This document shows, one piece after another, positions 5,203-59,515 of a DNA stretch of 64,000 nucleotides. The DNA comes from Adenophora triphylla var. japonica. Lineage: Eukaryota > Streptophyta > Magnoliopsida > Asterales > Campanulaceae. The DNA lies in assembly GCA_022495995.1 (NCBI GenBank), contig JAFEMH010005390.1, positions 100,825-164,824 of the forward strand. Reading direction: 5' to 3'. The notes beneath the pieces are model-generated. The model saw only the letters and a list, made by a program, of their open reading frames with translations. It was not told the origin of the DNA and searched no databases. Within the stretch, counting starts at the first letter, position 1. Each line of letters starts with the position of its first letter. Position numbers and translations under genes: made by a program.

Positions 5203-5275
5203 GCCGCCGGCATGAGATGGAGAAAAGAAGCCGTACGGCTAGAAGCCTGTTTTTTCCAGATTATTTAAAATCAGG
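5203..5275 (+). promoter_or_regulatory. Promoter of antisense gene 1 (element A): palindromes plus TATA-like box
   Basis: Arms GCCG/CGGC around one base (5203-5211) are followed by the perfect palindrome AGCCGTACGGCT (5229-5240), then the TATA-like 'ttatttaaaat' (about 5262-5272). The first ATG of the gene is at 5372. The same palindrome sits upstream of TATA in the LTR of this element. Confidence 0.65.
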
Positions 5276-5371
5276 TTTTGAACGGGCATTGGGCACTTGT
5301 TGCCGCCCAAGAACGCAGAGAGAGAGAGAATTTCGAAATTCTTCAACCCTTTTGCTTCCCTTTGATTTGAA

Positions 5372-7937
5372 ATGGATCCGGAGGGCAATCCCATACCAAG
5401 GCAAGCAAGGAGAAACATCTCGGCGGCCGCGAGAAGGAGGAGGAAGGAGCTCGTGAGGACGGAGAGGAAGTATGACTTCCTTACGCCTCCATCGGAGCTT
5501 TATCCGGGGAGAAGGGAGCACAAATCAATGAACCCGCGATCAGTTGGGGTAAGCATTCTCATTTTGCTCAAATCCGATGATTTTGCTTGATTTTTGAATG
5601 ATTTAGGGCTTGACCCGAATTCTAGGATTTTGAATGATTTTTTTGAATGATTTTGAGATGCATGAACAACCTATGAGGCTAAGAATATGCATGTGCAATT
5701 TTTTTTGACAGAAATTATGAGAATGACTCACTTTTTTTTCTCGCAAAATGAAATAAGAATTTTTTCAAAATATGAGACGGAGTTCTTGCCTTGTGCTAGA
5801 ACTAGGTCAAAATTCTGATTTTCAATGAGAAAACATGATTTTGGAAGATGAAAATGATTCATGCATGCCATTTTTTGAAAAATAATGCTTATGTGCGAAA
5901 AATTATGATTTTGTGCTTTAGGAAAGCAATGACGCGTTTCAAGTGATGAAAGACACGTTTTTTATGCAAAAGTTATGCTAGAAAAACTTTTATGAATGCT
6001 TTTCTTTTGAAAATATGTGCACTTTTGAATATATGCATGCTTTTGAAATGATATGAAGGGCGACGCTTCTTTTGATGTGCTTGTCTACGAGGAGAACAAG
6101 TCTAGAGGACCGTCGGAGATAGCGGTCAAGCTTTGGCGAGAGGATGCCGGATTTTGAGAAGGATGGGGTGAATCCCAAGCGGTGGTGAGGGCTACCGGCC
6201 CTGGATGCATTTGTAGAGGCTATCGGCGGGGTGTCCACATCACCTCGAAGAAGCAAGGGCTTAGTCCGAGGCCCTTTCGAGTTACGGTGGGGCGGTACTC
6301 ATAGCTTTCACCCAGTGAGCCGGAGAGGCGCGGTGACTCACTGCCCGATTTTGCGCTATTACGGGCTTACGGTTCACCGGGAGGCCCGTGACTTGGAGGG
6401 ACCACATCACGGCGGAGGAGTTCCGAGGCTTTGGTAGGGTTTGAGCTGATTCCCAGTGGGGATGGAGACACGGAATGTCGAGGTGGCGGTTCGGACTAGC
6501 ATACGAGAATTTTCTTGCTAATGATGTGGCCCTTGGTAGCTAGAAGCATTCATATGGTTGATGCTATCGATCACCATCTTTGCCAGTGCAGGACGATAGC
6601 TATGACTTGCCTCCTCGACTCTCTGGAGGATGTTGATGGGATAGGGACGGTCTCTTGGGGAGAGGCCGGATTGGCGGAGTTGTACTTCTCGTTGGACATG
6701 TACGGTCGGAACAAAGGCTGCTTCGATGGGGCTTTTCTTTTGCCCTTGAGGTAGTCTCCTTTTTTTCTTTTCTTTTCTCTTTTCTGTCTTGAGACTTTTA
6801 TAAGAGAGAAAATGACCTTTTGATTTTTGAACATGCGAGGCTGGTTTTGCGAGGTGATCGGGTTCTTCCACTTGGAACCCGGCCAGTGATGTCACCATCT
6901 TCCTGCTATGGTTATTTGGAGGAGATGCGAGAGATAAATTCACGGGAAGACCCGGATTACCTTCGATTACAAAATGGTGAGGCCGGTCATCAACGGGGAT
7001 GGGCACGATGGAGTGGACTTCTACCCTGGGGCGGTATCCGAGAGATCTTCTTTGGGAGATGCTATAGAGGTGACGAGGCGAGAGGAGGTGGCTTACGGGC
7101 GACATGTGATGTCATCTACTTGGGGGACCGCTTCTCGAGACGGCATGGTCATGTTCCCCACTAGATGCCATTACTCCTTCGACCCTCCGGCACGGATGCT
7201 GCGGCCCGAGGCGGCGGTGGATGAGATTGAGAGGTACCGAGCGGGCGTAGGCTGCAGAGGAGTATTTTGACATGGACACCCCCTACTGTGTTTGTGGAGC
7301 GGCGCTGAGGACGCCACGAAGCTAGTGAAGGCTGGCGGTCACTCGGGGATATGGGGAGGATGAGCCTCTTGACCCGCCGATCCCTCCTGCGCATCTGTCC
7401 TACGTGGTCCATGGAGTGCCGAGGAGGATGAGGATACTGTCCACGATGCTAGGGAGCCCCGGTACACCTTGCCGCTGATAGCACGTAAGTGTACTCTTAG
7501 GGTCTTATTCCCTTTTTAGCTTTCGGATTTTACGCTTTTGCAATTTTACGAGATTTTACGAGATTTTTCTCTTCTCTTTTTTTTTTTTTTTCGGGTTCCG
7601 GCTCGCACTTACGATAGGTGGTCGGGCGAGAATAGGGGCTGGAAGGACATGTGCCGGTCTCTTCGAGGAAGGCGCTGCGCTTGAAGGCGGCGGATGCGCG
7701 GGAGCACAGGCGCAAGAGACGGCACGTCGGGGGCACGGCGTCTACCTCGTCGGCCTCGGAGTACTCTTCCGGTGCCATGCCTCGGGGGCGGGGACCCAAC
7801 GCCGACATTCGGAGCGGTGGGCCGAGTACGGGCACGATAATGTCCATTTGTCGACTTGAGCGACCGGGAGGACTTGATGAGGGAGGCTAGCATTTATGGT
7901 GAGCGGCGATGAGGAGGAAGAAGAATCGGAGGCCTAA
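5372..7937 (+). pseudogene. Antisense gene 1: plant mobile domain (PMD) protein carried by element A
   Basis: It lies opposite to gag-pol, between integrase and 3' LTR. Exon 1 (5372-5548) encodes a basic N-terminus (AAARRRRKELVRTERKYDF) ending at a GT donor, TTGGG|GTAAGC. A roughly 500-bp intron follows; the next exon starts near 6058. The PMD (PF10536-like) shows as FELRWGGTHSFHPVS (about 6270-6310) and DVDGIGTVSWGEAGLAELYF (about 6630-6690). Further donors are at about 6751 and 7484, each followed by T-rich intron-like sequence. The product ends in an acidic tail, EEEEESEA, at TAA 7935-7937. Several frames are broken, so this copy may be inactive. B2 has the same gene with the same intron positions. 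PMD proteins such as MAIL1/MAIN affect transposon silencing in plants; the role here is inference. Confidence 0.72.
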
Positions 7938-8286
7938 GAGGTCTCTAGAATAGATTTGGAACAAAAACAAACAATGAACAATTTTTATGCACACTTTGTT
8001 TATTTTTTGCTTTATTTGGGCGCCGATGGGGCGAAAACATTGTATTTATGTTTTATTTACTTTTCTAATTTATGCTTTCTCAATTTGCATATTATCTGAG
8101 CCTTGGGGCAACTTTTTTGCTTGTAATTGGGGCTGAAACTGGGCCAAAATGATTTATAATGATGTATGAATGCTTGGATGGCTTCTGGATATGTTTTTGT
8201 ACAGGTTTTGGTTGAAAAAGTGGGGTGAAAACTCCCTTGGGCAGCAACTTTGGTTCTTTCGAAATTTCTGCGAGAGAGCTAATGTA
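7938..8286. other. Spacer between antisense genes 1 and 2 (element A)
   Basis: A/T-rich sequence with no supported coding region; probably the 3' UTR and terminator of gene 1 followed by the upstream region of gene 2. Confidence 0.5.
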
Positions 8287-8363
8287 GCCGTGCGGCATGG
8301 CCTTGAGGGCAAATGTAGCCGTGCGGCTAACGATTCTGCGAGCCGGTTATTTTACGAATAAAA
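8287..8363 (+). promoter_or_regulatory. Promoter of antisense gene 2 (element A): palindromes plus TATA-like box
   Basis: GCCGTGCGGC (8287-8296) and AGCCGTGCGGCT (8317-8328) are followed by the A/T-rich 'gaataaaagc' (8356-8365). The motif, spacing and order match the LTR promoter and gene 1 of the same element. Confidence 0.65.
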
Positions 8364-8462
8364 GCAAGGCTTGGCCATTTCATTTCATTTTCACTCTAGA
8401 CTTGTCCCAATTGTTCCCGAGCATATTTTGGACCTAAAAGCACCATCTTTGATCACTTTGGG

Positions 8463-10005
8463 ATGGAGAAGCTCGTTAGATTGCAAAGGGGGAAACGAGA
8501 CCATTTTCTATCCGGTCTTCAATCTTGGGCGAGATATAACTTCCAAAATCACAAGGGGCTGCTTGATTCTTCCTTCAAGATCAAGTCTTTATGGCATTTG
8601 AGGGATCTCCCGCCCGATTGGGATACTGTTGAGAGCCGCGGCAAAGTTCTGCAGGACGTCAGGAGACATGTTTCTTGCTTTTCTTACAACGAAATCGTCC
8701 CAACGCACGAAGACTTGAGCCTTGATTGGGAGTCCCGAGGCGAGGCTATATCTATTCCGCTGATCGGAGACGTGCCGGTGACGGTAAAGCTTGCATCTTT
8801 TGCGAGATTCCTTTGGGAGAGGTGAGAGGATGATGGTAGCCCGGATAGGATTGATCTTTACGATATCCCGGGCGGAGTTTGGGTCTCCGAGATATGGCTG
8901 CGACCACGGTGGCTATGGATGCTTTCATTCTCTGCGTATTCTCTATTTTGTTCCTTTCTTGAGTCCGTGGGGATGCGTCATAGTGGTCTCTTGGACATGG
9001 TCGAGGCTGCGGGTGGGAAGGATATTGTCCGTGGTTTTGGGAGAGACATTTCATGGGATTGATAGGATGGCTCGGGAGACCGTTTCATGAGGTCCAGGAG
9101 TCAGGCTATGTTGACTCTGTGGCTGCGGGGAGAGGCTCGGGGCTTTGCACGGGGCTTTGCCGACTCGGTGCCCTTGGGTGATTTCTCGGAGAGGTGCACC
9201 TAGGCGGCGAACGGGGTAGGCGGGAGGCGATGATGGCTAGGCTATCCACTTCGGACATCCGTTGGTGGATACCACATTGGAGGTTGCGGAACCAGAGGAT
9301 ATTTCGGGAGTCTTATGCTTTGTGAGGGTTCCGAGTTACCAGTGGTCGTCCTTCTACATACCTGCTTGGTATCCCGGGCGGTTTGGGGCTTTACGGGAGC
9401 CATTGAGTGATTGGGAGGACATCCGGACCATGGAGGTGGTGTCATTGGATATGAGAGATCCGGCCCGGCTTCTCTTTCTTCTCGAGGGCTTGGACACATC
9501 TTGCTTTCCCACCCGGGGCTATCTTCGGGAGCGGGAAGAGCACCATCTTGACCCTTTGTCTACTTGGGTAGTACGAGAGGGAGATGGGAACGACTCGAGC
9601 TATCTTGGAGGATAGACGTCGAGCTTTATTGGGAGGCGGCGTGACTCGAGTAGGACTACGAGGGAGGCGAGGCTAAGGCGAGTTGCCATAACCAATCGGG
9701 TGACTTGGTCGGGGATATGGAGGCTCGGTACAAGAGATTGTCCGAGGTTGCTCCTTTGGCCCGAGGCTCGAGAGGGAGGAGGTGCGGACTCGTGCTCGGA
9801 TAGAGAGCGCTCATTGACACGGGGTTGGTAGAGGCTCCGGTGAGGATACCGGAGGTCGGGATGAGGGATACCGAGCATTATTGAGAAGAAAAGGAAGAAG
9901 ACTCGACGAGGCCGAGGAAAAGGGAAGAAGGCGAAGAAGACTCGGCGAATGATGACCGACAAGTCTTTTCTCGAGATCCTCTTATTGCCATTTTGCAAAC
10001 ACATT
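8463..10005 (+). pseudogene. Antisense gene 2: PMD/DUF7745-like protein carried by element A
   Basis: The ATG at 8463 opens a frame reading GLQSWARYNFQNHKGLL and LRDLPPDWDTVESRG, then VRRHVSCFSYNEIVPTHEDL. That last block has the pattern 'F..NE.VPT.EDF' found in a family of plant proteins related to PMD (recalled as DUF7745). Then come a hydrophobic stretch with a VVLGETFHGIDRMA-type motif (about 9030-9075) and QWSSFYIPAWYPGRFG (about 9340-9390). The tail is charged and Arg/Glu-rich. Frames shift several times, so exact exons are uncertain. The same blocks occur in order in B2 at 59607-61142, showing that the gene belongs to the element and is not a random capture in one copy. Confidence 0.62.
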
Positions 10006-10619
10006 AGTTTATTTAGGCATTTTATTGTATTTTAGATCTTTTTAGCGAGGTTAGCGAGTTAAGAGGTAGACCGTGCTTGAACTCATCAAGAAGTTTTTAA
10101 CTTGTAATGAACAAGAAATATTATTTTAGAAATTAATCAAGACACATTTCATGGAAATTCAAATGTCTTTATTGATTGGGACCCGCTTTATGGAAAACCC
10201 GAAATGCCCTTTACTATTTAGGACACACTTCATGGAAGCTTAATCGTCCTTTTTATTATTTAGGACACATTTCATGGAAACTTAATCGTCCTTTTTATTG
10301 CTTAGACCGAACCATATATGGTGCCTACGTTCCCCTTTTACAAGAAAGGCTAAGGGGCTCGGGTCTTCGTAGTTCATTACGGTGAACTAATAATTTTTCA
10401 TGTGCGGCCACTGTCTTTTGCCTAGACCGCCCTTTTTGGGGTTTTCGGCCTAGTTGGGCATTACTCTTTTGCACTTTTTTTCTTTTTTTTTTTTATATGT
10501 GCGGCCCATTTGTCTTTTGCCTAGGCTTGCCCTTTTTGGGGTCTTCGACCTAGTGGGCATTACTCTTTTTGCACTCTTTTTTTTTCTTCTTTTTTTATTA
10601 TTTTTTTTATATTTTTTTT
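10006..10619. repeat. Spacer between antisense gene 2 and integrase of element A
   Basis: It contains about four copies of a roughly 45-bp unit with 'acacatttcatggaaa' (10140-10310). A duplicated block around 'tttgcctag..gccctttttgggg' follows (about 10400-10580), with long T runs. The start resembles the B family ('gtagaccgtgcttgaactcatcaagaa' in both), so this spacer is an old shared part. No gene is seen. Confidence 0.7.
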
Positions 10620-13147: not shown

Positions 13148-14282
13148 TCATGGAATGCTTTGTCTCGGCCTCTCAAAGAATTTTCGTAGGTCAACAAAGT
13201 GCTGCCCACCTTCTCCTTTGGAGTGGATTATCATGTCGTCTACGTAGACCTCAATCTCCTTGTGGATCATGTCATGAAAAAGTGCGGTCGCTGCCCTTTG
13301 GTAAGTAGCCCCGACATTCTTGAGCCCGAATGGCATTACTGTATAACAGTAGGTTCCCCACGGTGTGGTAAAGGCTGTCTTTTCTTGGTCTTCCTCGGCC
13401 ATCTTGATCTGGTTGTAGCCTGCAAAACCATCAACGAAGGATTTGACTTCGTAGTTGGCGATGGAGTCCACCGGGATGTCTATGTTTGGCAGAAGGGTAG
13501 TCGTCTTTGGGGCTGGCCTTGTTCAGATCTCGGAAATCCACACAGCAGCGCACCTTCCCATTGGCCTTGGTTACGGTCACGATGTTGGACAACCATGTCG
13601 GGTATTCAATAACTCTGATGAATCCTACCCGCAGTAGCTTCTCAATTTCTTCTTTGACCTGTAGAGACCATTCCGGCTTGATCTTTCTCAGTTTCTGCTT
13701 TACTGGCTTGGCATCTGGTGCTAGAGGGATTCTGTGTTCTACTATCGAACTGTCTAGCCCCGGCATATCTTTGTATGACCATGCAAACACGTCGACGTAT
13801 TCTCTGAGCAGCTCGATTAGTCTGTCCCTTTCAACCCCCTGGAAGAAGCTTCCAATCTGTGTCTCTTTAGGTTCCTCAATAGTACCCAAGTTCACACTTA
13901 TCAAAATCTCCTCGGCAGCTTGGGCCCGGTTTTCCTCTTTTTCTGAAACCTGCTTAAAGATTTCTTTAATGTATTGTTCGTTTAGTGTGTTTGCATCTTG
14001 TTCAAATGATTCATTATTAACTGTTGTTAAGTTTTGAGTTAATTTATCATTTGTTAAGTTGGCAATAAGAGGATAATCAGAAAGATTTGTCATTTCATTC
14101 AAGATAAGGGGAAAGATGACATCGATTACATTTTCATAATCCTCAGGCGTGAGGCCTTCGGATGACTCTGAGGACTGGAATTCGAAGATTCCTGACTCAA
14201 CTGAAAAGACAACATAGACTCTGGACCCTACACTACTTATTGACTCGAGGGGAACTTGACAAGGGTTGGACCGGGATCTCAC
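13148..14282 (-). pseudogene. Reverse transcriptase (element A)
   Basis: Upstream linker VDVFAWSYKDMPGLDSSIVE is followed by the finger region (EKLLRVGFIRVIEYPTWLSN) and VDFRDLNKASPKDDYP. After a frameshift near 13440-13470 come FVDGFAGYNQIKM, VMPFGLKNVGATYQRA and the catalytic box EVYVDDMIIHS (about 13225). About 130 residues before the linker (SESSEGLTPEDYENVIDVIF and after) match nothing I recognise in Tat elements. The ORF overlaps the stop of the preceding ORF by a few bases and has no ATG there, so it was probably part of one polyprotein. Confidence 0.88.
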
Positions 14283-15139: not shown

Positions 15140-16813
15140 GTCGCTGACCCGGTGTTCTCACCCACTTCTTTCTCGCTGCGGGAAAGGGATAGGAAAGGTT
15201 TAGACTCGGGGTAGGTGTTTAGGCTGAAGGCTCAGGCAATATGCAAATTAGAATCTTCAAGTTTACTTAAAACAGTGTCTTTTATTAATATCTATTTGGT
15301 TGGAAAAGGGGTTCTGCCCTTCTTTTTTCACAACTACTCTAGATCCTGGATCAGTGGGTTCCGTCACTACGTCTATAAGCCCCTCGTATTCCACCTGTAT
15401 TTCGACCTCCCAGGGTGGACAGCCCCGGGCGAGGGTCCTATAGGGCACGCGGATCCCACCGACCGAGAGTAAAGAACGCTCCTATCGGGTCTAGCGGGTC
15501 ATAGGACCTTTCAACGCACGAGCGATGCGGATTATAGTCAAGGCAATACCGGGAAAGTCTCGTCTCTCTGCCTTGACGGATCTTTGACAGAGTTTCGCTT
15601 GAGCGAATGACGGTTTTTGACTTTCGGTAATGTCCGAGAATATAATAGGCATGGGTCGGGCGGCAAAAGCCGGATGACACAGTGTCACATTGAACTTCGT
15701 TGCATACGCAGTGCGCGAGTCGGAATCGAAGTCAATGCTGGTCAAGATCTTGCCAATTTTTCCTTGTCGGAATTTTGGCAGAGCTTCGCTTGAGCGAAAG
15801 ATCTTTTATTTTGGCAAAGACTTGGTCTTGACTCTTACGCATTTCATGCAGGTCAAGGTCAATAGTCAATGTCGGAGTTGAGATCTCGCCAATTTTTCCT
15901 TGTGATTCAATGAATTTCGCTTGGCGAAAATCTTGGTTTCAGATTATGAGCTAAGGCTTGACCTTTACGTGGGTATGCAACTGGGCTATATGACACGGAC
16001 TAGACCAAAAACCAACCAAAAGTCACGGATTTTTGAAACGTGTGACACGGACTGTGCATTGGTCGACACTGGCTGCCATGGGGAGGTTGGGATGATTCCG
16101 TGCGCGCCCGGGAGCATCGTAAGGCTGTCCGTGACTGCAGCTGGAACCACCCTCGGGTTTGAAGGACGTGCGTGCAAAAGTGTACAGGATATATCAGGTG
16201 CGCGTAGTGTGCGGTCTCCTAAAAATGTTCCTTTTTGAGTTAAAACAGAGATTTTCATAAATGTGTTTTAAAGGAATGATTTTCGGGACGGGGGAAAATG
16301 CAACACATAAGCACGTAAATTTTCTGGGAGCCCCAGTCAGTCATGGAGCTGAATAGCCCCAAGCTGCTAGGACTGCCAGATTAACCATGATTTTTCCTGG
16401 TGGAATTGCCACTGAGGTCGTATGGTCAGAATCCTATGAGGATTAGCCGTACGACTGCATGGATCAATTTTCCAGGTTCCACTCCTTTTGCTATTTTTCG
16501 GGTTATTTCCCGTTTCAAAGTATGCACAGATTCCAAGATGCAAATGATGCAATGCATGGTAAAAGAAAGCAAGCACGATTAATGAAATCGGCGATGGGAG
16601 TCTAACCCGCTCAAAGGGAAAAGCTTTTTGTATTTTTTTTTTTCAAAATTTTTTTTTTTTTCAAAAAAGGATACTGGTACGTGGGATTGTTAAACCACCT
16701 TGTTATCCCAAGCCCCGGGTTAGGGAGCGATACAGGAAGGGTAAGTGGGGTCCACCTATATACCAAGTATCGACTTTTGTTTTGAAAATAAAGCTTTTCT
16801 CCTTTGGGATGAT
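15140..16813 (-). other. Long 5' leader of element A with repeated hairpin palindromes
   Basis: No gene is seen between the primer site and the first ORF. The palindrome TTCGCTTGAGCGAA occurs at 15594-15607 and 15785-15798, and with one base lost at 15916-15928, inside a roughly 150-bp repeated unit ('gatcttgccaatttttccttg'). A block near 15400-15430 ('acctcccagggtggacagcc') has a counterpart in the leader of B1. T/A runs near 16630-16670 adjoin the LTR. Confidence 0.65.
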
Positions 16814-16833: not shown

Positions 16834-18441
16834 TGTGAATGTGTGCCCAAATTCTTTTGTTTATTGGAATTCACGCGAGTTTGAAGACATCCGAGTTATT
16901 TGAAAAACGGAGTCGCCACGCCATTTTGATTACCTCAAAACTTTGAAAAAAAGGTTTTATGGGTTCGGAGGTTAAGTTACCCCTTGGGAAGAACGTTTGG
17001 CGTTCACCCAAAGTGCCTTGCCGGAGCAAGTCTCCCTAGATTTCATTAATCGTGTTTGCTTGCGTGCTTTCTTTGTGTGCATGTGTTTGAAAATAAGGGG
17101 GGGAATGTCCCAAGTTGTCTTCCGGACGTACAAACCATTTGTTGGTTGTCGCTCGGGATTCCTTGGAATTTATGTATTTGGGATTATGATCCCGTCCTCA
17201 TCTTATGACTTATGATCATCGCATTTTAAACCTCGGGACCCTCGGGACTTGCGTGATCGAGAGAATGACTCTCTTTTGGGTCAAAGATGAGGTTCTTTAG
17301 GAAGGAATGTCCTTAGCCCATCAATCCTACGCTTTAAGACGGTCGAGCTCGTATAGAGGCTTCATACTCATTCTTAAGCGATAATCGGAGATATAGGGTT
17401 CAAGGTTATCATTTTCCTAAAGAAATCATGAACCTTTAATGGAAGGAACGATGCAAAGATGAGAACTTTTACACCGGTCCATTCCAAGGTTGGGGAAAGG
17501 GGGAAATGCATGATAAAAAAATGACTCTTTAATGAAAAGATGACATTTTGGTTTTAGCAAATGATGCTTTTTGATTTAAAGAAATGATCTTTATGCAAAT
17601 GATGCATAAAGATTTGATTTTTATGCAAATGATGCATTGAAAAAGGGGTTTTGATGCAAAGGATGCATTTTTATTGAAAAAGATTTGATCTTTGTATGCA
17701 AATGATGCATAAAGATAACATTTTTATTGGAAAATAGGGATTTTAGGTGCAAAGGATGCACCTTTATGAAAAAGACTACATTTTTATGACAAATGAGGTC
17801 TTAATGCATGCAAAGGGGAAAGGGGGTGATAAAGATATGATCTTTATGAATAAATGCCAAGTCCCAAGCAAGATATATGAATGCAATGAGCAAGTATATC
17901 AATTAAAATGCAAGGTTAGGGCGTGCGAGGTTACCAATCGTTTCCTTCGCTTCTTCGGACGGAGCTAGGAGGAGAGGTTCTTCTTGGGTCTTCAAGGAGG
18001 AGGGAGATGGCTTCTTGAGCTTCTTCTTCGCCTTCTTGAGCCTTCAAGGGTTTTTCTTCACGTCTGGACTGCTATGGAGTGTGTGTGTGTGATTGTTTGT
18101 GTTGTTCTTGAAATGGGTAGAGGAAGGCTCTATTTATAGGCAGTCTGGATAAGGCTAATGAAGCCGTGCGGCTGCAGGCCCTTTGCAAATGAGGCCGTGC
18201 GGTCTTATCCACAATGACTCAGCATTCTAGAACCATGCAAGGTGGCATTATTCTAGAAGCTTCTCCCTAATTAAGAAAAACGTGTTTTCTTAATTAGGAA
18301 GGCTCCTTACAGCCCTAATTTAAATTTGGACTGTTCCAGGACATTTCCGGAACACTAGGAAAGTCCGGGGAATTACCGGAAAACTTACCGAAATGTCGGG
18401 AAAATTAACCGGAAGGCATGAGCCAGATTTGGGTACTTACA
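16834..18441 (-). repeat. Element A 5' LTR (1608 bp)
   Basis: It is a direct repeat of 2294-3898. The differences I see are about ten to fifteen substitutions and short indels, for example in the A-run near 17640 and the stretch near 18340. That suggests roughly 99 percent identity and recent insertion. The TATA box and palindromes are at 18131-18202. Confidence 0.93.
18131..18202 (-). promoter_or_regulatory. Element A 5' LTR promoter: TATA box and two palindromes
   Basis: TATAAATA on the minus strand (18138-18131) has AGCCGTGCGGCT (18162-18173) and GCCGTGCGG (18194-18202) immediately upstream. This LTR copy drives genomic RNA. Confidence 0.75.
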
Positions 18442-18605
18442 CCCCTGCGCGGCCGCCCACAGCAAAGATCAACAAACGGTGAACCTACTGTATAACTGGG
18501 CGGTCGCCCATCATCACCCCGGCGGTCGCCCATGACGACAGAGCCCTCGACGAATTTTCTCCCTTTTGCTCCGAAGTCTAACCCGGTTGGTCTTCTATCC
18601 CAACA
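18442..18605 (-). repeat. Element C 3' LTR, part 2 of 2, with adjacent purine tract
   Basis: The CCCCT duplication (18442-18446) begins this part, and CCCAACA at 18605 ends it. Three CG palindromes are in it. Next to it the minus strand reads AGGTGGGAGAT (18616-18606), the purine tract used for plus-strand priming in copia elements. Confidence 0.92.
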
Positions 18606-22648: not shown

Positions 22649-23216
22649 TGTTGTGAATATTGGCCCTCCACACCCAAGCAAACCACAAGAATAATAATCG
22701 CACACAAACAAAGCACAAGAAATCAGAAAACACAGAAAAGACACAAGAAATTGTTAACCCAGTTCACCAATTTGATTGGCTACGTCTGGGGGCACTACCA
22801 AGCCAGGATCTTGCACTATATATGTAGAATTTTGTGTTACAATGAGTCTAGGGGAGGAATACAACTTAAATATATATTAGGGGAACAAACCTAACCCTAG
22901 ATGGACAAGGGAACCCGAAAATACGTCAAAAAAGAGTCCAGATTTTCTTCCACCCGACACATGGGCGGTCGCCCAAGTGCCCATGGGCGGTCGCCCAAGC
23001 CAAGAATTCCTCCGAACCAAAACCTCTGTACACATGCGCGATCGCCCATGACCCCCTGCGCGGCCGCCCACAGCAAAGATCAACAAACGGTGAACCTGCT
23101 GTATAACTGGGCGGTCGCCCATCATCACCTGGGCGGTCGCCCATGACGACAGAGCCCTCGATGAATTTTCTCCCTTTTGCTCCGAAGTCTAACCCGGTTG
23201 GTCTTCTATCCCAACA
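22649..23216 (-). repeat. Element C 5' LTR (568 bp)
   Basis: TG...CA ends with TGTTG/CAACA. It is complete and serves as the reference that revealed the split 3' LTR. It holds six CG palindromes and a TATA-like stretch on the minus strand. Confidence 0.95.
22869..23142 (-). promoter_or_regulatory. Element C LTR promoter: six palindromes upstream of a TATA-like box
   Basis: GGGCGGTCGCCC occurs at 22963, 22985, 23109 and 23131. Variants GCGCGATCGCCC (23036) and GCGCGGCCGCCC (23058) bring it to six copies in about 180 bp. On the minus strand these lie upstream of TAATATATATTTA (22879-22868). Confidence 0.75.
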
Positions 23217-27513: not shown

Positions 27514-29119
27514 TGCAATAGGTTCAATTCCCCCTGGAATCTTATATGTGGATATATATACCATGAGTTTCAGGATCCTTTGGAGTCCCCCGGGGCACAG
27601 CCGAACGGTTACAAAAGCAGCATTGCTGGACTTGCAACCTCAGCGTGGGGAGTTCGAATCTTGGCAGGAGCAGCCAATTAATTGGTGATGTAAGAGTAAT
27701 GTAAATGCCATGTAGGATGGCTCCCTTGGGGCCAGGAGTATAAGGGGTGCTGTCACTCTGACTACCTTGGGCATATCCCGCGATTTACCTCCGCCAGTCA
27801 CTGAGGGGTCGGTAGCTGGTGATCCAGGATTAGTCCGGCGAAGCTGGAAACCTGGTAATAAAATAAAATTATGTCTGAGGCTTTGTGTGGAGATTAAGAA
27901 AAAATATAAATGGCGAAACTGGAACCTGGGTATCAAAAAAAAAATTATGTTTGAGGCTTTGTGTGGAGATTAAGAAAAAATATAAATGGTGCAAGTGTTA
28001 TAATTATAAAAAGTGAAGTAAGAGAGATTATGAGTAGGAAAATAAGTAAGTTAATTATTGTTGTGAATATAAACGTAAAGTAAAGAAGAGAATGAGTGAA
28101 AAAAATAATAAATAGTTTTTTGTCATTTGAAAAATAAAAATCTTATATAAAACACTTAAAATGGCAAAATATAAATATTTTAGGATGTTAATTTTTTTAT
28201 TTAAAAAAAAAAAACTATAGCATTGGTGGTAAAAAAAAAAAAAATTGTAAGTAATGACTATGGATTGGGAAGGGTGGGGTCAGGAGTGTGAGATTGGGTA
28301 TTTGTATATGAGTGGAGGGAGGCTGCGAATGTTTGTAAGCCATCGGTCTGCGAATTTATTCTGAGACTGATGGCTTGCAAACATTCGCAGCCTCCCTCCA
28401 CTCATATACAAATACCCAATCTCACACTCCTGACCCCACCCTTTCCAATCCATAGTCATTACTTACAATTTTTATTTTTTTTACCACCAATGCTATAGTT
28501 TTTTTTTTAAATAAAAAAATTAACATCCTAAAATATTTATATTTTGCCATTTTAAGTGTTTTATATAAGATTTTTATTTTTCAAATGACAAAAAACTATT
28601 TATTATTTTTTTCACTCATTCTCTTCTTTACTTTACGTTTATATTCACAACAATAATTAACTTACTTATTTTCCTACCCATAATCTCTCTTACTTCACTT
28701 TTTATAATTATAACACTTGCACCATTTATATTTTTTCTTAATCTCCACACAAAGCCTCAAACATAATTTTTTTTTTGATTACCAGGTTCCCAGCTTCGGT
28801 GGACTAATCCTGAACCACCAGCTACCGACTCCTCAGTGACTGGCGGAGGTAAATCACGGGATATGCCCGAGGTAGTCAGAGTGACAGCACCCCTTATACT
28901 CCTGGCCCCAAGGGAGCCATCCTACATGGCATTTACATCACTCTTACATCACCAATTAATTGGCTGCTCCTGCCAAGATTCGAACTCCCCACGCTGAGGT
29001 TGCAAGTCCAAAGAATGCCGCTAGAACCGCTCGCCCTGTGCCTGGGACTCCAAAGGATCCTGAAACTCATGGTATATATATCCACATATAAGATTCCAGG
29101 GGGAATTGAACCTATTGCA
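27514..29119. repeat. Large near-perfect inverted repeat (foldback), arms about 0.8 kb
   Basis: The left arm 27514-28349 is the reverse complement of 28364-29119, with a 14-base loop (28350-28363). Arms differ by scattered substitutions. The left arm also has a roughly 70-bp tandem duplication ('ttgtgtggagattaagaaaaaatataaatgg' twice, about 27860-27990) that is absent on the right, which explains the length difference. Each arm contains 'gagttcgaatcttggcagg', like a tRNA-type B box, and further in an A-rich stretch, so a SINE-like unit may be inside. No ORF of note. Confidence 0.9.
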
Positions 29120-43273: not shown

Positions 43274-44691
43274 TGTAAGTACCCCAATCTGGATCACCCC
43301 CTTTCAAACACACGGGAAACACCGCAGACTCATCAACGCAGTCTCGGAGACCTCTGGCACTCAAAACCCTCTCAAAACCCTCTCAAACCCCCAACCAAAC
43401 CAAGGGAGGAGCCTTCCTGGGATAAAAGGGGACAAAAGGACCTTTCGGGAATTTTCAGGAAATTGGGAAAGCAATATTGGTCCGTACGGACCTCTTTGTT
43501 GTCATAATTACTGAATCTCCTTAAAGTCCACAATATTCCCTCAAATCCCGGGGAAAATGATTACTCCCCTGCAGAGTTGGTCCGTACGGACCTCTTTGCA
43601 TGCAAGATGGTCCGTACGGACCTTATTGCTCAGGGGACACCATAATTGCAAATATTCCTCCATCATCACAGATTCCCTCAAATCGAGGAAAACCAAAATA
43701 CTGGATTACCAAGGAGGTCCGTACGGACCTCTTTGCACCTAATCTGGCACTATAAATAGAGGGCTCCCCCTCCTCATTTTCACACACCTCCCACTTCTCT
43801 CTTCCTCCCTAGGCCTTCTGGCTTCCCTTCTAAGTCCTTTCGAGGCATTCCCGGCCCCTTTCGGATCCTTCCGAGGCCTTCCGAGCCCCCTCGTGGTGCT
43901 CCGAAGCCTCCCCGAGCGCTCCCGAGACGCTCCCGCGCTGTCCCGAGGCACTCTCGAGGTACTCTGAGGCCCCTCGTGGTACTCCGAGGCCTTGCCTGGT
44001 CTTTCCACGGTGTCCCGGCTCTTTCCGAGTCAAACCGGCGATCCCAAACCACGCCGAAACTCTGCCCGAGTGACTCCTGCCACCACAACGCACGCCGAAC
44101 CTCTGCCCGAGTGATCCCGACGATCCCCACGCACGCCGAACCTCTGCCCGAACGCAGCCTACAACCTCAACTCACGCCGAAACTCTGTCCGCAGACAACC
44201 GGTCCCTCCCGAAGCAATCCCGATCCATACCGGAACGCTACTCCGACCTCAAACACTATTCCCCAGCGGAAGACAGACACGAACCAACATTGGTAAGGCT
44301 TCCTTCCTACACTATTTCAATATATTTCCATACATAGCATACAATGTAGACATCCGATACAGCATGCATTTTTAAAAGCACACACACACACACACAACAT
44401 TTAAAGGATATTAGGGGTATCCGAAAGACTCGTTTTACGAGGCTACTCGGGTGAGCTCTAATATTCTAATATTCTCTTCCCGGGGAGTCATCTGACCTCC
44501 GAACTCAAAATCTCATCACACAAAAAACAGTTTAAAATTATCTTTAAACTGATGCCCTTTTTCAATGTTTTGGGCTTAATAAAAACGGCGTGGCGACTCT
44601 ACAAAACAAAAACGGCGAGACACCGCTCCAACGCGAAAGATGCCAGATGCCGGGGCGCGATTGCGCTGCCTCTCGGATCCGGGTAATTTCA
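43274..44691 (+). repeat. Element B1 5' LTR (1418 bp)
   Basis: It matches the inverted LTR of B2 (51979-53460) over its length. Four GGTCCGTACGGACC copies precede the TATA box at 43751. A T/C-rich stretch follows, then a region of repeated 'ctcggaggcc/cacgccgaaactctgcccga' units (about 43850-44190). Confidence 0.92.
43479..43758 (+). promoter_or_regulatory. Element B1 LTR promoter: four perfect palindromes and TATA box
   Basis: GGTCCGTACGGACC at 43479, 43579, 43609 and 43716, then TATAAATA at 43751-43758. The last copy ends 21 bases before the TATA box. Each is followed by 'ctctttgca' or a close variant, so the repeated unit is longer than the palindrome. Confidence 0.85.
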
Positions 44692-51978: not shown

Positions 51979-53460
51979 TGAAATTACCGGATCCGGCTCG
52001 CGCGCGAGCCCCTGGCATCTCGCATTCGTCGCCGTTCGGGAAGTCGCCGGATCCGAGAGGCGGCACAATCGCGCCCGGCATCTGGCTTATTCCGTTTTAG
52101 CGTTGCGTGTTGGAGGTGTCTCGCCGTTTTGCTTTCGCATTTTGTAGAGTCGCCACGCCGTTTTTATTAAGCCCAAAACATTGAAAAAGGGCATCAGTTT
52201 AAAGATAAATTTTAAACTGTTTTTGTGTGATGAGATTTTGAGTTCGGAGGTCAGATGACTCCTCGGGAAGAGAATTTTAGAATATTAGAGCTCACCCGAG
52301 TAGCCTCGTAAAATGAGTCTTTCGGATACCCCTAATATCCTTTAAATGTTGTGTGTGTGTGTGTGTGCTTTTAAAAATGCATCTTTGTATCGGATGTCTA
52401 CATTGTATGCTATGTATGGAAATGTATTGAAATAGTATAGGAAGGAAGCCTTACCAATGTTGGTTCGTGTCTTGTCTTCCCCGTGGGAATAGTGTTTGAG
52501 GTCGGAGTAGCGTTAGGTACGGATCGGGATTGCCCGGGAGGGACCGGTTGTACGCGGACGAGTTTCGGCGTGAGTTGAGGTTGTAGGCTGCGTTCGGGCG
52601 GAGGTTCGGCGTGCGTGGGGATCGTCGGGATCACTCGGGCGAGAGGTTCGGCGTGCGTTGTGGTGGCAGGAGTCACTCGGGCGAGTTTCGGCGTGGTTTG
52701 GGATCGTCGGTTTGACTCGGAAAGAGCGGGACACCGTGGGAAAGACCGAGCAAGGCCTCGGAGTACCACGAGGGGCCTCAGAGTACCTCGAGAGTGCCTC
52801 GGGCGGCGCGGGAGCGTCTCGGGAGCGCTCGGAGAGGCTTCGGAGCACCTCGAGGGGCTCGGAAGGCCTCGGAAGGATCCGAAGGGGCCGGAATGCCTCG
52901 AAAGGTCTTAGAAGGGGAGCCGGAAGGCTTAGGGAGGAAGAGAGAAGTGGGAGGTGTGTGAAAATGAGGAGGGGGGGCCCTCTATTTATAGTAAAAATTT
53001 CGGAGCAAAGAGGTCCGTACGGACCTTCTTGGTTATCCGAGAATTTTGGATTTCCTCGATTTGAGGAATGCGCAATGATGGAGAATATTACGGAATGATG
53101 ATGTCCCCCATGCAATAAGGTCCGTCACGGACCATCTTGCATGCAAAGAGGTCCGTACGGACCAACTCTGCGAGGAAGTCATCATTTCTTAGGGATTTGA
53201 GGGAATATTGTGGACTTTAAGGGGATTTAGTAATCATTGAAACAAAGAGGTCCGTACGGACCTTAATTGCTTTTACGATTTCTGAAAATTCCCAAAAGGT
53301 CCTTTTGTCCCTTTATCCCGAAAGGCTCCTCCCTTGGTTTGGTTGGGGGTTTGAGAGGGTTTTGAGAGGGTTTTGAGTGAGAGAGGTCTCGGAGACTGCG
53401 TGGATGAGTCTACGGTGTTTCCCGTGTGTTTGAAAGGGAGTGATCAGTTGGGGTACTTAC
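51979..53460 (-). repeat. Element B2 3' LTR (1482 bp)
   Basis: It is an inverted copy of the B1 LTR. Near its inner-coordinate end it has about 60 extra bases containing a second 'gatgccaggggc..ggatccggtaat' block, so the LTR tail is partly duplicated. The last base of the expected ACTTACA is lost at 53460. Confidence 0.9.
52983..53262 (-). promoter_or_regulatory. Element B2 LTR promoter: palindromes and TATA box
   Basis: TATAAATA on the minus strand (52990-52983). Upstream are GGTCCGTACGGACC at 53012, 53150 and 53249, and a copy with one extra C at 53119-53133. Spacing follows the B1 LTR. Confidence 0.8.
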
Positions 53461-53699
53461 GAAGCCCCTCGACGACGTCACTTATGAAAGAAGTGGGGTC
53501 GCCCAGATAAGATAAGGGTCCTAATGCGGATCGCGTCTTTGGGAGAGGAAGTGGCCAGTGAGGGTCAAAGTGAGGACGTGGTGGTGTCCTTTTGGGTGAC
53601 CGTTTAGGTGATAAGGTTTGGACCACAGTGATAGGATTCCTACGTATCCACTGGCGGGAATCAAGCACAGTCGTAGTTCGGGTGTGGGGTGAGTGTTAC

Positions 53700-54290: not shown

Positions 54291-54339
54291 TACGATTTTC
54301 CTAATCGGGTGGTTTAAGGCCTTAGGAGCCGGAGATAGA

Positions 54340-54650: not shown

Positions 54651-55018
54651 ATGATGGCCGATGATTGCTTCACCATTTGGCATTTTGGGAGGCGCTTCGT
54701 GCCTTGGGACTTGTACTCGGAGGTGTTGGCTCCTTCGCGTGCTTGTTTTGCCGTTGAGTGGGCGAGGATGATGGCCGATGATTGCTTCACCATTTGGCGT
54801 TTTGGGAGGCGCTTCGTGCCTTGGGACTTGTACTCGGAGGTGTTGGCTCCTTCGCGTGCTTGTTTTGCCGTTGAGTGGGCAAGGATGATGGCCGATGATT
54901 GCTTCACCATTTGGCGTTTTGGGAGGCGCTTCGTGCCTTGGGGCTTGTACTCGGAGGTGTTGGCTCCTTCGCGTGCTTGTTTTGCCGTTGAGTGGGCAAG
55001 GATGATGGTGGTCTTTGA
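54651..55018. repeat. Tandem array 3 of element B2 (117-bp units)
   Basis: Three full units and a partial fourth starting at 54651, 54768, 54885 and 55002. 117 is divisible by three, so both strands stay open. The plus frame repeats a 39-residue unit starting MMADDCFTIW. No sign that it is translated. Confidence 0.95.
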
Positions 55019-55179
55019 GGATATGCGATCTTGCATGACTTCCACTTTGACTTGTTGGGGGGAGGAGCTCGGGCTTACTTTGATGGCCGGTGCTTGCTGC
55101 CCCGTTGAAGTGGCGAAGATTCGGGCTTACATCTTGCCGGTGCTTGAATTCTTTGGGGATGCGTGACCTTGTAGAGGGC

Positions 55180-55730
55180 TCCTTTTACGTTGGGAAGATG
55201 ACTTGGACCTCCAGTGGTTGAGTTGTCGTTGAGCGTTTGGGGCGTCTTGTGCCTTGATATTCGTCTTTGGGAGGTGTTGGCTCCTTCTTGAATTGCCGTT
55301 GAGCGGGCGGTGGTTGGATTGCCGTTGGAGTGGGCGATGGTTGAATTGCCGTTGGAGTGGGCGAGGTCCGGTCTTATGCTTGGACAAGGGGATTGAATTG
55401 CCGCTGAAGTAGGCGGAGGTCCGGTCTTACGCTTGACGGCCGGTGGTTGAATTGCCGTTGAAGTGGGCGAGGTCCGGTCTTACGCAGCGGCCGGTGGTTG
55501 AATTGCCGTTGAAGTGGCGAGGTCCGATCTTACGCTTGACGGCCGGTGGTTGGAGTATTACCGTTGAAGGGCGAGGACCGGTCTTACGCTTGGCCTAGGG
55601 GATGAGTTGCCGTTGGAGCAAGAGTGGCGAGACCGGTCTTACGCAGCGGCCGGGGATTGAGTTGCCGTTGAAGTGGGCGAGGTCCGGTCTTACGCTTGAC
55701 GGCCGGTGGTTGAATTGAAGGGTTAGGGAC
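55180..55730. repeat. Tandem array 4 of element B2 (about 50-bp units)
   Basis: About eight degenerate units with 'gaattgccgttgaagtggg', 'cgaggtccggtcttacgc' and 'ttgacggccggtgg'. Confidence 0.9.
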
Positions 55731-55825
55731 CATTACGCACTTGGATTTCTTTGGAAAAGGCCTTAGGACAGCCAGGGGCAAAGATTATAAGGGCAGGAAA
55801 GTAATTTGGCCATCCCTTGCAAAGA

Positions 55826-55913
55826 GGTCCGTACGGACCAACCTGGATGCAAAGAGGTCCGTACGGACCACTTTGGTTTTTTACAGTTCCCAGGTTTGAC
55901 CAGGCTTTAAATT
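55826..55913 (+). promoter_or_regulatory. Promoter of antisense gene 1 (element B2): two perfect palindromes plus TATA-like box
   Basis: GGTCCGTACGGACC at 55826-55839 and 55856-55869, both in 'tgcaaagaggtccgtacgg', then CTTTAAATT at 55905-55913 and ATG at 56023. The motif is identical to that in the LTR of the same element. Confidence 0.78.
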
Positions 55914-56022
55914 CCGAGGCTCCCCCTTCATTTCCCATTCCCAGTTCGTGAACCAGCGAGAGAAAAGAGAAAACTCCATTTTGTCCCAAATCTTCCATTT
56001 TTCTTAGCTTGAATTGCTTGCA

Positions 56023-59000
56023 ATGGCGGAGGGATCTCGAAGGAGTCGTCGTCAACGCAGATCGAAGGTGGTTGAGCGGCGAATGGAGCTTCAAAGGAAT
56101 TGGACTTCGTTCGTTCCATCTTCGAAGAACCAGGATGTTTTGTATCCAGAATCCGGAGGTGCATAATCGTCGCTCCATGAACGTTCTGGGAGGTAAGAAA
56201 TCTGTTCCGCTTTTGATTCCCTCGTCGAATTTTTGAATGCTAGAACTAGGTTTTAGTTTTTCGCATTTTTGAATTTTTTTGTTATTATTTTATGCCTTTT
56301 TTGTGAAATTCTTGATGAATTGTTGAAAATAGACATGTAAAAATTATGGGTATGTGTATTTTGTGCAGAAATGTGTAGATTAGCTTTTATTTGTGAAAAT
56401 AAAGTGCCTATCTAGTGAATTGCATGCTTTGGTGTTTTGTACCTAATGCTATTTATGTATGTACATTGTGAGAAAAATTATCGTGTAGTGATAATTTTTG
56501 TGAAAAAAGAAAAAAAAAAATGTGACACGTGCCGTGTTTGTGACGGGTTATATGCGAAAGTGTGTGCCGTGTTGGGACGGATTTTCTTTTGAGAATGTGC
56601 TATATAGTGTGTGCCGTGTTTTTGGGTAACTGGACTTTGTAGGGGAAAATATGCGATATGTGCGTGTTTTTGTGACGGGTTATATGTGAAAAATATGTGC
56701 AATGTGTGCGTGTTGGGACGGATTTTCTTTTGAAAATGTGTCGTGTAGGGTTTAATCCCCCTTTTTCTTTTTTTTTTTTTTTTTTTTTTTTTGAGAAAAA
56801 GATGTATACAGGTGTGTGCCGTGTTTTGTGACGGACCGCATGGGAAAAATTATATGCATGATATATGTGAAAATCATGTGCAATATGTGCCGTGTTTTGT
56901 GACGGGTTATATGTGCCTTTATATTAAGTACCGTGATTGACGTACCTTTCTTTTTGTTTACCTGCAGGATGCGGGGCTTATGGCCTGGGAAGGCCAAGAG
57001 GATGAAGACTCGGGATCGCTCGAGGCGATTGTGGAGGCTATGGCGTGGATGCCCGATATTTCCGTGGGCGGTAGGCCGAGTCCCCGGAGGCTGGTTTATG
57101 CTTCTCGGCCTAGGTGTGTTCGTTGAGAACCTCGGGCTGGAGTGTCGACACGAGGAAGAACAAGAGTGTCTTCACAGGCCTTTTCGAGTATTGGTGGGGA
57201 TACCACCCACACCTTCCACCCGAGCCGGGGCGAGGTGACGGTGACGCCCACCGACTTTGCTGCGATCACCGGCTTTCCTTCAAGGAGAGCCGGTGCGGTG
57301 GAGGGATATGATAGCAGTGACGTGTTGGCCGAGCTGCTGGGCTTTGAGCCTCGTCCTCGCAGGGCACCGGATGTGCCAGACAAATGGCAGTGGAGAATGA
57401 GGATCGACGGCGCGATGTGTGGGGCCTACATCCGAGAGTGCACCGGCCAGTGATTAGCCGGTGAGCCGGTTGGCGCGCTCACTTCTTGTGGTATGCACCG
57501 TCACGCTAATCGAGACTTTCGTTCTCGAACCACGCGACCACGCATGCCTCCCTTTGCTCATTGGAGAGCTTCGACCGATTCCGGGATAGGGTCTCGCGGC
57601 ATTGCTTGGGGGCGAGGCGAGCCTGGCCATTTGAGCTCTACTTCTCCTTGGACCGGTTTAGCCGGGGGTGGCCAGGTTACGTTGGCCCGCTTTGCTGACT
57701 TTTTGCTTTGGAGGTATGAGGTTTAGCTTGTCATGTTTGATTTAGCAACTTGTCTTTTCTCAGATTGTCTTTTGCACCTAGCCTTCTACGTTTTGTGCGA
57801 GCTGTGTGGTTTTTATGAGGTTTTCCGGTGCTTCCCGTAGGATAGGGATCCACAGAGGCATTCTTTGCGTACCCACTGCTATCTTTGGGATAGGGCTCAT
57901 CGTACGGCGAGGAAGAGGAGGAACCCAGGCGGGGGAAGCTCACCATCGCCTACGGGGATGTGCGGGGAGCGTCTGGAGAGAGATGTGTAGCGCGTGAGGA
58001 GGTTTGTCTTGTTCCCGTGGACTCGGTATGAGGGGGATGAGTTCGAGGGGCTCCAGAGTGTGTACCGACGCGGCGGAAGATGCGCTGCGAGGCTTGAGCT
58101 TTTAATGACGCCATGTGCACAGGGGAGGCGAGTGCTTACAGCGGCATGGCCGGTGGTGCTTCTGCCATGGCTCAGAGGACCCTCCGCTTTGGGATGCTTG
58201 ATTCCCGGGACATGGACGTGCTCGATTTCGAGAGATACCTTGGCGGTGTCGGCGCGGGAAGTTCATTTCACAGCCTACGGAGAGGATGTACGGGGCCTTC
58301 GGTGAGGAGGAAGGCGAGGGAGCGCCCGAATGTGCGCGCAGGAGAAGAGAGGCTGGCCGCGAGGCTCCCAGCGAGAGGGATTCCGATGCCGGGGCCAGGG
58401 ATTTCACGTACGTCGCGCGGGGAGCGAGGTCGAGGAGGAGTGTGTGCATGCCCGTTCTTTGAAGCGGAAGCTCTATTTGTGCATATAAAGTGGATCCCGA
58501 GCAGAGATCGGTGAGTGTCGACTCTTTTCCATCTTGGCATCTTTTACGCATTTTCTCTTTTTGTTGTTGAGTATAAGCGTATTTGATGAGCGTTTCCTTG
58601 GCTTCTTGTTGGTGCGGAGTCAGGGAGAGCCTACGATATGCGGCTCGCCGTTACGTGGCGATGCGCTCCTTCGCTAAGAAGATGGCGTCGAAGATGTCTG
58701 TCGGTCTTCGCGTCGTGTGCCGGCGTACGAGCCTATGCCTTCGAGCGTGCAGTGGGCGTTCCTCAGCTAGGGCGGCGGAGCCGCGGCGGGAGGGGCCTTT
58801 GAGGCGGCATAGCATGGATCTTAGGGGCGTCTTCGGGAGGCTGCGGGAGCCTTCGAGGAGCGGCCCTTTTATCCGGTTCGTACCTCCGCACGGCGCACGG
58901 GGTGAGGGTTCCTCGAGCCTTCTTTCTTTGATCCTTTCGCCGGATTTGATCCTTAGTACTTCTCGTGGGAGCCTCGGGGCGGGTGCTCGGTATTAGACGA

Positions 59001-59090
59001 TGAGGATGTGACGAGGCGAGTTATTTGGGATGCCAGACTTTTCTTTGGAGGATCTTGGCGAGGATGATGATGATGAGGATTCGAGTAGTA
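56023..59090 (+). pseudogene. Antisense gene 1: plant mobile domain (PMD) protein carried by element B2
   Basis: Exon 1 (56023-56192) starts MAEGSRRSRRQRRSKVVERR, a basic N-terminus like that of element A, and ends GGGAG|GTAAGA. Exon 2 begins at 56968 after 'tttacctgcag' and carries the PMD: FEYWWG, then HTFHPSRGEVTVTPTDFAAI (about 57190-57260) and ELYFSLDRFSR (about 57630-57665). It ends at GAG|GTATGA (57713). The exon ending at 58510 (GATCG|GTGAGT) and a last exon from about 58624 give an acidic tail EDDDDED near 59050-59080. Intron positions match element A. Several frames are broken. What the protein does is not known from this sequence. Confidence 0.72.
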
Positions 59091-59442
59091 TTCATTTGCT
59101 TTCCCTCTTTTCATATCCCTCTCTCTTTTTTTTTTTTTTTTTTTTTTTTGTTTAGCAACGAGACATTTTTGGGTACTGTAATAAAACACATGTATTTGCA
59201 TGGCAAACGGTATTTTATTTTAAGATGTAATGTCATTTATTTTTGTGATTCAGGGAATTGTCCTAGAAATTGTTGCTATTATTATTTTTATTTTTGTACA
59301 TGCCACGTGGTGAGAATGCGTTTGTGGGTAGTGTTGGTTTGCGGGAATGGCTTTGGCCGGTGTTTGGGTGTTTGGAGCAAGGTTTCTTTGAGGACGGTGG
59401 TTTTATGCTTGTTTTACGGGAAATGGGTTACGTTTGCAAGGA

Positions 59443-59515
59443 GGTCCGTACGGACATACTTAGCATGCAAAAAGAAAGTCGTACGGACCAACCTTGCTTT
59501 GGGAAGGACATAAAT
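59443..59515 (+). promoter_or_regulatory. Promoter of antisense gene 2 (element B2): decayed palindromes plus TATA-like box
   Basis: GGTCCGTACGGACA (59443-59456) and GTCGTACGGACC (59478-59489, one C lost) precede 'gacataaatgc' (59507-59517). The ATG follows at 59607. Confidence 0.65.

What the first reader, a model, noticed from the sequence alone, without database searches (positions are those of the whole stretch)
5203..59489. An element-specific three-promoter regulon: LTR and two antisense genes share one palindrome
In element A the motif (A)GCCGTRCGGC(T) lies just upstream of a TATA-like box in the LTRs (3625, 3657; 18162, 18194), ahead of antisense gene 1 (5229) and ahead of antisense gene 2 (8287, 8317). 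In family B a different motif, GGTCCGTACGGACC, holds the same three places: LTR (43479-43716; 53012-53249), gene 1 (55826, 55856) and gene 2 (59443, 59478, decayed). The motif changed between families, yet all three promoters changed together. This suggests one sequence-specific factor controls genomic RNA and both antisense genes. An element-encoded regulator (gene 1 or 2) is one candidate, by analogy with VANC proteins of VANDAL transposons, which act on short family-specific motifs. A host factor is the alternative.
Basis: partly seen in the sequence, partly recalled or inferred. Interest (0 to 1): 0.93.

Follow-up and report, generated by a model that had tools for sequence, protein, structure and literature searches.

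The report
Shared family-specific promoter palindromes in retrotransposons
In what looks like a plant genome, four families of large retrotransposons each carry one short DNA palindrome both at the promoter of their genome and at the promoters of their backward-running genes, which suggests that one switch per family controls the whole element.

Summary
In four Tat-type LTR families (A, B in the window; C, D elsewhere in this genome) LTR and antisense promoters carry the same palindrome, flank-CG-NN-CG-flank. There are three flanks: A (A)GC, B GGTC, C and D TATGT. Its core starts 33-34 bp before TATAAATA in 6 of 6 LTRs measured. In 17 elements with both places typed, LTR and gene motifs agree in 16. 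The exception is a mosaic (A-type LTRs, C-type gene sites) that moved as a unit. Gene 1 is a plant mobile domain (PMD) gene in A and C, by weaker or unscanned similarity in B and D. One PMD-bearing MULE DNA transposon has the same design with another flank. Against a strict element-encoded rule, a copia LTR in the window with no extra gene seen uses the same grammar, and 7 of 10 other PMD loci scanned lack site pairs. A shared cis-regulon is well supported; that an element gene encodes its reader is plausible, not shown.

The parts
2294..3898 (-). Element A 3' LTR; TATA box TATAAATAG, sites at 3626 and 3657
   Evidence: duplicated CCCCT (sense AGGGG) at 2289-2293 and 18442-18446 read
16834..18441 (-). 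Element A 5' LTR, sites at 18163 and 18194; PBS-like tggcgactccgctgggga directly inside
3626..3666 (-). LTR promoter site pair of element A (31 bp apart, one site with 1 mismatch)
   Evidence: 34 bp from proximal core start to TATA start
18163..18203 (-). Same pair in the 5' LTR
5203..5240 (+). Antisense gene 1 promoter of A: weak site at 5203, AGCCGTACGGCT at 5229-5240, TATA-like TATTTAAA 32 bp on
5372..7936 (+). Antisense gene 1 of A (broken here, end approximate); basic first exon from 5372
   Evidence: read; no Pfam match in its window pieces; PMD in sister copy L054 (E 2.9e-14)
8287..8327 (+). Antisense gene 2 promoter of A: pair of GCCGTGCGGC 31 bp apart
8463..9956 (+). Antisense gene 2 of A (broken here, end approximate); sister copy L062 weakly resembles DUF7745
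   Evidence: E 0.029, below cut-off
43274..44691 (+). Element B1 5' LTR; PBS-like sequence follows
43479..43729 (+). Four GGTCCGTACGGACC sites in the B1 LTR, TATAAATAG after the last
51979..53462 (-). Element B2 3' LTR (ends approximate), sites 53012, 53150, 53249 and one interrupted at 53119
55826..55869 (+). Antisense gene 1 promoter of B2: pair 30 bp apart
56023..58990 (+). Antisense gene 1 of B2 (broken, end approximate); PMD-like
   Evidence: piece 57127-57450: PMD E 0.0096, below Pfam's cut-off; 39% identity over 75 aa to the A-type PMD piece
59443..59491 (+). Antisense gene 2 promoter of B2: one site with 1 mismatch, one decayed; in copy L045 both are present 31 bp apart (5980 with 1 mismatch, 6011 exact)
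59606..61140 (+). Antisense gene 2 of B2 (broken, end approximate)
   Evidence: read

Best explanation
Each of these Tat/Ogre-type families is an autoregulated unit. A dimeric sequence-specific factor reads a palindrome (flank-CG-NN-CG-flank) set just upstream of the TATA box in the LTR and ahead of the antisense genes, and so switches genomic RNA and antisense genes together. Shown: the sites, their place, their conservation and their covariation between LTR and genes. Inferred: binding by a dimer, its effect on transcription, and that the factor is element-encoded, most likely the PMD protein of antisense gene 1, whose short basic first exon differs between families. My estimate is about 0.85 for the shared cis-regulon and about 0.5 for an element-encoded factor.
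For: Sites beyond chance (genome counts with backwards controls). Four families with the same motif in LTR, gene 1 and a third place: A and B in the window; C; D. 16 of 17 typed elements concordant. Permutation of the 14 gives p about 1e-5, but copies of one family are not independent: the effective evidence is three motifs in four families. Geometry: the proximal 10-bp core starts 33-34 bp before TATAAATA in 6 of 6 LTRs, and 31-38 bp before a TATA-like box in 10 of all 15 promoters examined. Half-site columns are more conserved than the rest in 11 A-type LTRs (0.966 against 0.827) and 7 A-type gene 1 promoters (1.0 against 0.897). Site pairs: 7 in the window against 0 in each of 20 shuffles, 3 of the 7 belonging to A and B. 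PMD in gene 1: A, C; B, weaker; D, unscanned. A PMD-bearing MULE carries GAGCGATCGCTC-type pairs in both inverted ends and ahead of a second gene.
Against: No binding or expression data. A mosaic with A-type LTRs and C-type gene sites moved as a unit, so agreement in cis is not required. The copia element of the window has the same grammar with no extra gene seen. Of the 10 PMD loci L035-L044, 7 have no pair in the strict scan (L035 and L040 have degenerate ones); L038 has two pairs without a CG-NN-CG core; locus L036 has a second pair with flank AGG beside GAG-type sites at its PMD gene. C and D share a motif. The third C site has no TATA-like box or clear gene behind it. The centre NN differs between places but is conserved within a place (1.0 and 0.964), so it may be read too. 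Gene TATA-like boxes were picked from a list of loose forms.
Confidence: 0.55

Rival explanations
1. Host transcription factors with CG-NN-CG half-sites read the palindromes; each element family has tuned LTR and antisense promoters to one host factor so that they are expressed in the same cells.
For: A Ty1/copia element in the window, about 5.2 kb and with no extra gene seen, has three pairs of TGGGCGNNCGCCCA-type sites 22 bp apart upstream of a TATA-like box. C and D share a motif though their LTR starts differ. The A/C mosaic element moved. Seven of ten other PMD loci have no strict pair.
Against: The flank changed in parallel at three promoter places in several families, which a fixed host factor does not require. 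The open PMD loci L005-L018, taken as host-like, carry one such site in 14 loci; this is neutral.
Confidence: 0.3
2. The shared motif spread between promoters of one element by copying (gene conversion or template switching), without a common factor.
For: In B the LTR and gene 1 promoters align over 59 bp at 81%. The asymmetric centre has the same absolute orientation in LTR and gene sites of A and C.
Against: In A the alignments between LTR and gene promoters are at most 12 bp; LTR distance to TATA is fixed and half-sites are conserved over their neighbours; second sites keep the half-sites while the centre changes.
Confidence: 0.1
3. Ordinary GTAC sites for SBP-box (SPL) factors (candidate recalled from memory).
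For: B sites and A gene 1 sites read CCGTACGG.
Against: The centre is TG or CA in A LTRs and A gene 2, CC in the second A gene 1 site, and CA, TA, TC or GA in C and D, while CG..CG stays.
Confidence: 0.03

Closest known systems
VANC proteins of VANDAL transposons, Arabidopsis (PMC5735166; passages seen)
   Same: Element families with their own short motif in non-coding regions; motif and element family change together; sites accumulate in repeats; a motif also occurs in an unrelated element (AT9TSD1), as here in a copia LTR.
   Different: Here the carriers are mainly LTR retrotransposons, sites are palindromes at a fixed distance from the LTR TATA box, and no binding protein is shown. Homology to VANC was not looked for.
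Retand antisense TRP28 genes (PMC11963269; abstract, first part of the structure section, discussion seen)
   Same: Antisense genes between pol and the 3' LTR, tandem repeats there, and a proposed DNA-binding regulatory role.
   Different: Our gene 1 pieces match PMD and no scanned piece matched TRP28 (PF04195); the parts seen report no shared promoter motif.
Ogre elements with PMD extra ORFs (PMC6317226; passages seen)
   Same: PMD (pfam10536) in extra ORFs of 57% of Ogre elements in that survey.
   Different: The passages describe the ORFs and call their function speculative; no promoter motif in the passages seen.
MAIN/MAIL1/PP7L and the DOWN motif (PMC7156037, PMC9899485; passages seen)
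   Same: PMD proteins needed for expression of genes with a shared promoter motif.
   Different: DOWN is given as CATGCAGTTT in the MORC1 promoter, not a CG-NN-CG palindrome; direct binding is stated as unknown.

Membership tests
Tat lineage, Ogre clade | PMD-type antisense ORF between pol and 3' LTR | tested here: met
   above Pfam's cut-off in copies L054 (A) and L048 (C); below it in B; window A pieces gave no match. Antisense to RT at 13151-13522 minus (PF00078 9.3e-16)
Tat lineage, Ogre clade | additional RNase H (aRH) between RH and INT | not tested
   not searched
Tat lineage, Ogre clade | lineage-typical PBS | tested here: inconclusive
   TGGCGACTCCGCTGGGGA next to 5' LTRs of A and B1; tRNA not assigned
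Retand | TRP28 domain (PF04195) in an antisense ORF | tested here: inconclusive
   no PF04195 in the gene pieces scanned, but the broken genes were scanned piecewise; the genome search for PF04195 did not complete
VANC-type anti-silencing system | family-specific short motifs in non-coding element DNA | tested here: met
VANC-type anti-silencing system | element-encoded protein binding the motif and removing methylation | not testable with these tools
   needs binding and methylome data
VANC-type anti-silencing system | homology to VANC protein | not tested
   no VANC sequence was compared
SBP-box GTAC site | invariant GTAC core (recalled) | tested here: not met
   centres TG/CA, CC, TC/GA in A, C, D

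The most novel reading that the evidence does not exclude
PMD proteins are a class of transposon-encoded, sequence-specific promoter regulators: the basic first exon of antisense gene 1 reads family-specific half-sites around a CG-NN-CG core, the protein drives or de-silences its own LTR and antisense genes, the same design is used by PMD-bearing MULEs, and simple elements such as the copia family parasitise it. Plant MAIN/MAIL genes would then descend from such regulators.
Probability: 0.27. Interest if true: 0.92.

Novelty: new variant of a known kind. Interest (0 to 1): 0.76.

Why it matters
The role of the antisense genes of Ogre/Retand-type retrotransposons is unknown. A shared, family-specific motif at LTR and antisense promoters makes it directly testable: one can ask which protein binds which flank, and use natural families and the A/C mosaic as ready-made swaps. 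It would also give PMD proteins, which are tied to silencing in Arabidopsis, a concrete ancestral function to test.

Tried and rejected
Chance: rejected. SBP-box GTAC sites: rejected for A, C, D by the varying centre. An RNA-level role (dimerisation of genomic RNA) was considered and set aside because MULE ends carry such sites too. L038 first looked like a PMD promoter with the copia motif; its single site lies in a stretch whose open frame looks hAT-like by eye, so I dropped it. The L041 sites at 375/417 lie about 4.1 kb upstream of its PMD match, in an LTR-like stretch. L059 (B-type LTR) has C-type half-sites at 905 and 945 before a TATAAATA, which looked like a second exception; the stretch of about 1.4 kb (641-2037) interrupts B sequence and starts like another LTR (TGTGAGTACGCC), so I read it as an inserted LTR and did not count it. 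A protein search with the C-type PMD piece gave no hit at E 1e-3; no PMD relative in the PDB sequences. Literature: searches (0 papers; 20 of 37 listed; 10 of 47; 10 of 41; 12 of 1,116; 12 of 62; 0 papers) listed no paper whose title or abstract start names promoter palindromes shared by LTR and antisense genes; open PMC papers only. Structure prediction was not run: the window's genes are broken and loci from this genome are not among the sources the tool names. Rows dropped: of 16 rows with LTR and gene region typed, two were removed by hand (C1:128020 and C1:645475) because the gene-region site is a neighbouring LTR's own site; three rows have a typed gene region but untyped LTR (C1:2517145, C1:2961749, C2:2327153, the last again a neighbouring LTR site). 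In three B rows the gene-region site is at -3.5 to -3.7 kb, and which gene it serves is unknown. B positions were known only on C1 below 2.90 Mb. Of the 12 loci, three (L052, L053, L059) showed no gene 1 site in the 2.6 kb fetched.
Full report
What is in the window. The window lies in a genome of 2.48 Gb, a plant by its elements (inference). Element A is a Tat-type LTR element on the minus strand (LTRs 2294-3898 and 16834-18441), inserted in the LTR of a Ty1/copia element with a 5-bp duplication. B is present as two partial elements: B1 on the plus strand (5' LTR 43274-44691) and B2 on the minus strand (3' LTR up to about 53462, antisense genes to its right). A and B LTRs start alike (TGTAAGTACCC.AATCTGG) but are otherwise mostly dissimilar.

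The sites. An independent scan for pairs of GC-rich palindromes 18-36 bp apart finds 7 pairs in the window and none in any of 20 shuffles: one at A gene 2, one in the B1 LTR, one at B2 gene 1, and four in the copia LTRs.

More families. The LTR start occurs 12,218+12,516 times in the genome. From the places listed there I fetched 12, eleven chosen as likely 3' LTRs and one of another start type. Nine show a gene 1 site; in eight the motif equals that of the LTR, in one it does not (the LTR of L051 has only degenerate A sites). L048 and L050 define family C with ATGTCGCACGACAT in LTR and gene 1. This motif has 6,439+6,476 genome hits and none for the backwards pattern; in the L050 element the places are 3 in each LTR, 1 at gene 1 and 1 at a third place. 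Family D, found through the same motif, has another LTR start; its LTR, its PMD gene and its second gene all carry the motif (that the stretch is an LTR is inferred from its TATA box, LTR-like start and the same site pattern 20 kb away).

Covariation. From place lists alone, 70 LTR starts on C1, C2 and part of C3 were examined; 16 have a typed LTR and gene region, two of them artefacts of a neighbouring LTR; of the remaining 14, 13 agree (A 5, B 5, C 3) and one does not. With three further elements seen only (L051, L057, L058) the count is 16 of 17. These are copies of few families, so the independent evidence is the parallel change of three promoters across three motifs in four families.

The exception. 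The discordant element (C1:617564) has A-type sequence through the LTR promoter part (96.5% to L057 over positions 1-687), tandem repeats that both types share, and C-type sequence from about position 1690 on, with C-type sites at gene 1 and the third place. Its LTRs are flanked by the same 5 bases, CACTC, and their first 380 bp are identical; an A element is nested in its leader, with duplication CCTAT. It therefore moved as a unit. This fits action in trans but shows that agreement in cis is not obligatory.

Architecture. The sites have the form flank-CG-NN-CG-flank. The centre differs between places (TG, TA, CC, GA, TC) while the half-sites are mostly kept; within one place the centre is conserved too (1.0 in A LTRs, 0.964 at A gene 1). 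The proximal core starts 33-34 bp before TATAAATA in 6 of 6 LTRs; over all 15 promoters examined, 10 lie at 31-38 bp, three gene promoters at 47, 56 and 64, one decayed window promoter has only its distal site, and the third C place has no TATA-like box. In 11 A-type LTRs the half-sites are more conserved than the other columns (0.966 against 0.827; random columns reach this in 5e-5 of draws), and likewise in 7 gene 1 promoters (1.0 against 0.897; 3e-4); relatedness of the copies is not corrected for.

The genes. Gene 1 is a PMD gene: L054 (A) E 2.9e-14 and L048 (C) 9e-12, both above Pfam's cut-off; B pieces are below it at 0.0063 and 0.0096, but align to the A-type piece (39% over 75 aa). D was not scanned; its piece is 45-47% identical to A and C pieces. 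The PMD part does not clearly group C with D. The first exon of gene 1 is short and basic and differs between families. Gene 2 has only a weak DUF7745 match (E 0.029).

Beyond LTR elements. A PMD search of the genome returned 149 matches (36,013 first-look candidates, 115 scored). One PMD element, L037 with L046, is a MULE (PF10551 5.4e-11) whose inverted ends (385 bp, 86%) and a second gene carry GAGCGATCGCTC-type pairs 21-22 bp apart, with further single sites not assigned. Of the 16 PMD loci L019-L034, 10 have at least one site of that type and 7 have them on both sides of the PMD match (L028 is the locus of L037; L019 has a site with another flank). Against a strict PMD rule: of L035-L044, 7 of 10 have no strict pair (L035 and L040 have degenerate sites), L036 has a second pair with another flank, L038 has two pairs without the CG-NN-CG core, and the copia LTR has three pairs with no extra gene seen (copia by eye from its open frames and primer site, not scanned against Pfam).

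Judgement. The shared cis-regulon is well supported. That the reading factor is element-encoded is the economical reading of parallel change in several families, and PMD is the leading candidate, but host factors remain a serious rival because of the copia LTR, the shared C/D motif and the mosaic. The closest known system in mode is VANC/VANDAL (PMC5735166, passages); the published proposal of a regulatory role for antisense Retand genes (PMC11963269, parts seen) rests on another domain and names no motif in the parts seen.

Noticed in passing
window 22650-23216 and 1885-2293 with 18442-18605: Ty1/copia LTR (one copy split by element A) with three pairs of TGGGCGNNCGCCCA-type sites, 22 bp apart, upstream of a TATA-like box; no extra gene seen.
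   Followed up: partly
G000 C1:615976-648509 (L049, L061, L065-L070): Mosaic element with A-type LTRs and C-type antisense gene sites, duplication CACTC, with an A element nested in its leader.
   Followed up: yes
L037 with L046 and L047: PMD-bearing MULE with the same kind of palindrome pairs in inverted ends and ahead of an internal gene; a further pair with flank GCT lies beyond its end in L046 (145, 167).
   Followed up: partly
L059 641-2037 (LTR-on-minus orientation): LTR-like insertion starting TGTGAGTACGCC with two GTCGTGCGAC sites 40 bp apart before TATAAATA, inside a B element.
   Followed up: partly
window 16446-16455: Lone near-palindrome GCCGTACGAC in the leader of element A, between 5' LTR and gag; role unknown.
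   Followed up: no
window 4405-5096: Array of 50-bp tandem repeats between the 3' LTR and gene 1 of A; the A/C mosaic changes type at or near such an array.
   Followed up: partly
window 27627-29010: Large, nearly perfect inverted repeats, unrelated to this finding.
   Followed up: no
L036 7325 and 7347 (reverse orientation): Pair AGGCGCCCGCCT 22 bp apart downstream of a PMD match whose upstream sites are GAGCG-type: a different flank in one locus.
   Followed up: no
site spacings in A, B, C, D, copia, MULE: Many spacings (21-22, 30-31, 73, 84-85, 126) are near whole turns of DNA; B spacings of 100 and 107 fit less well. Not tested statistically.
   Followed up: no
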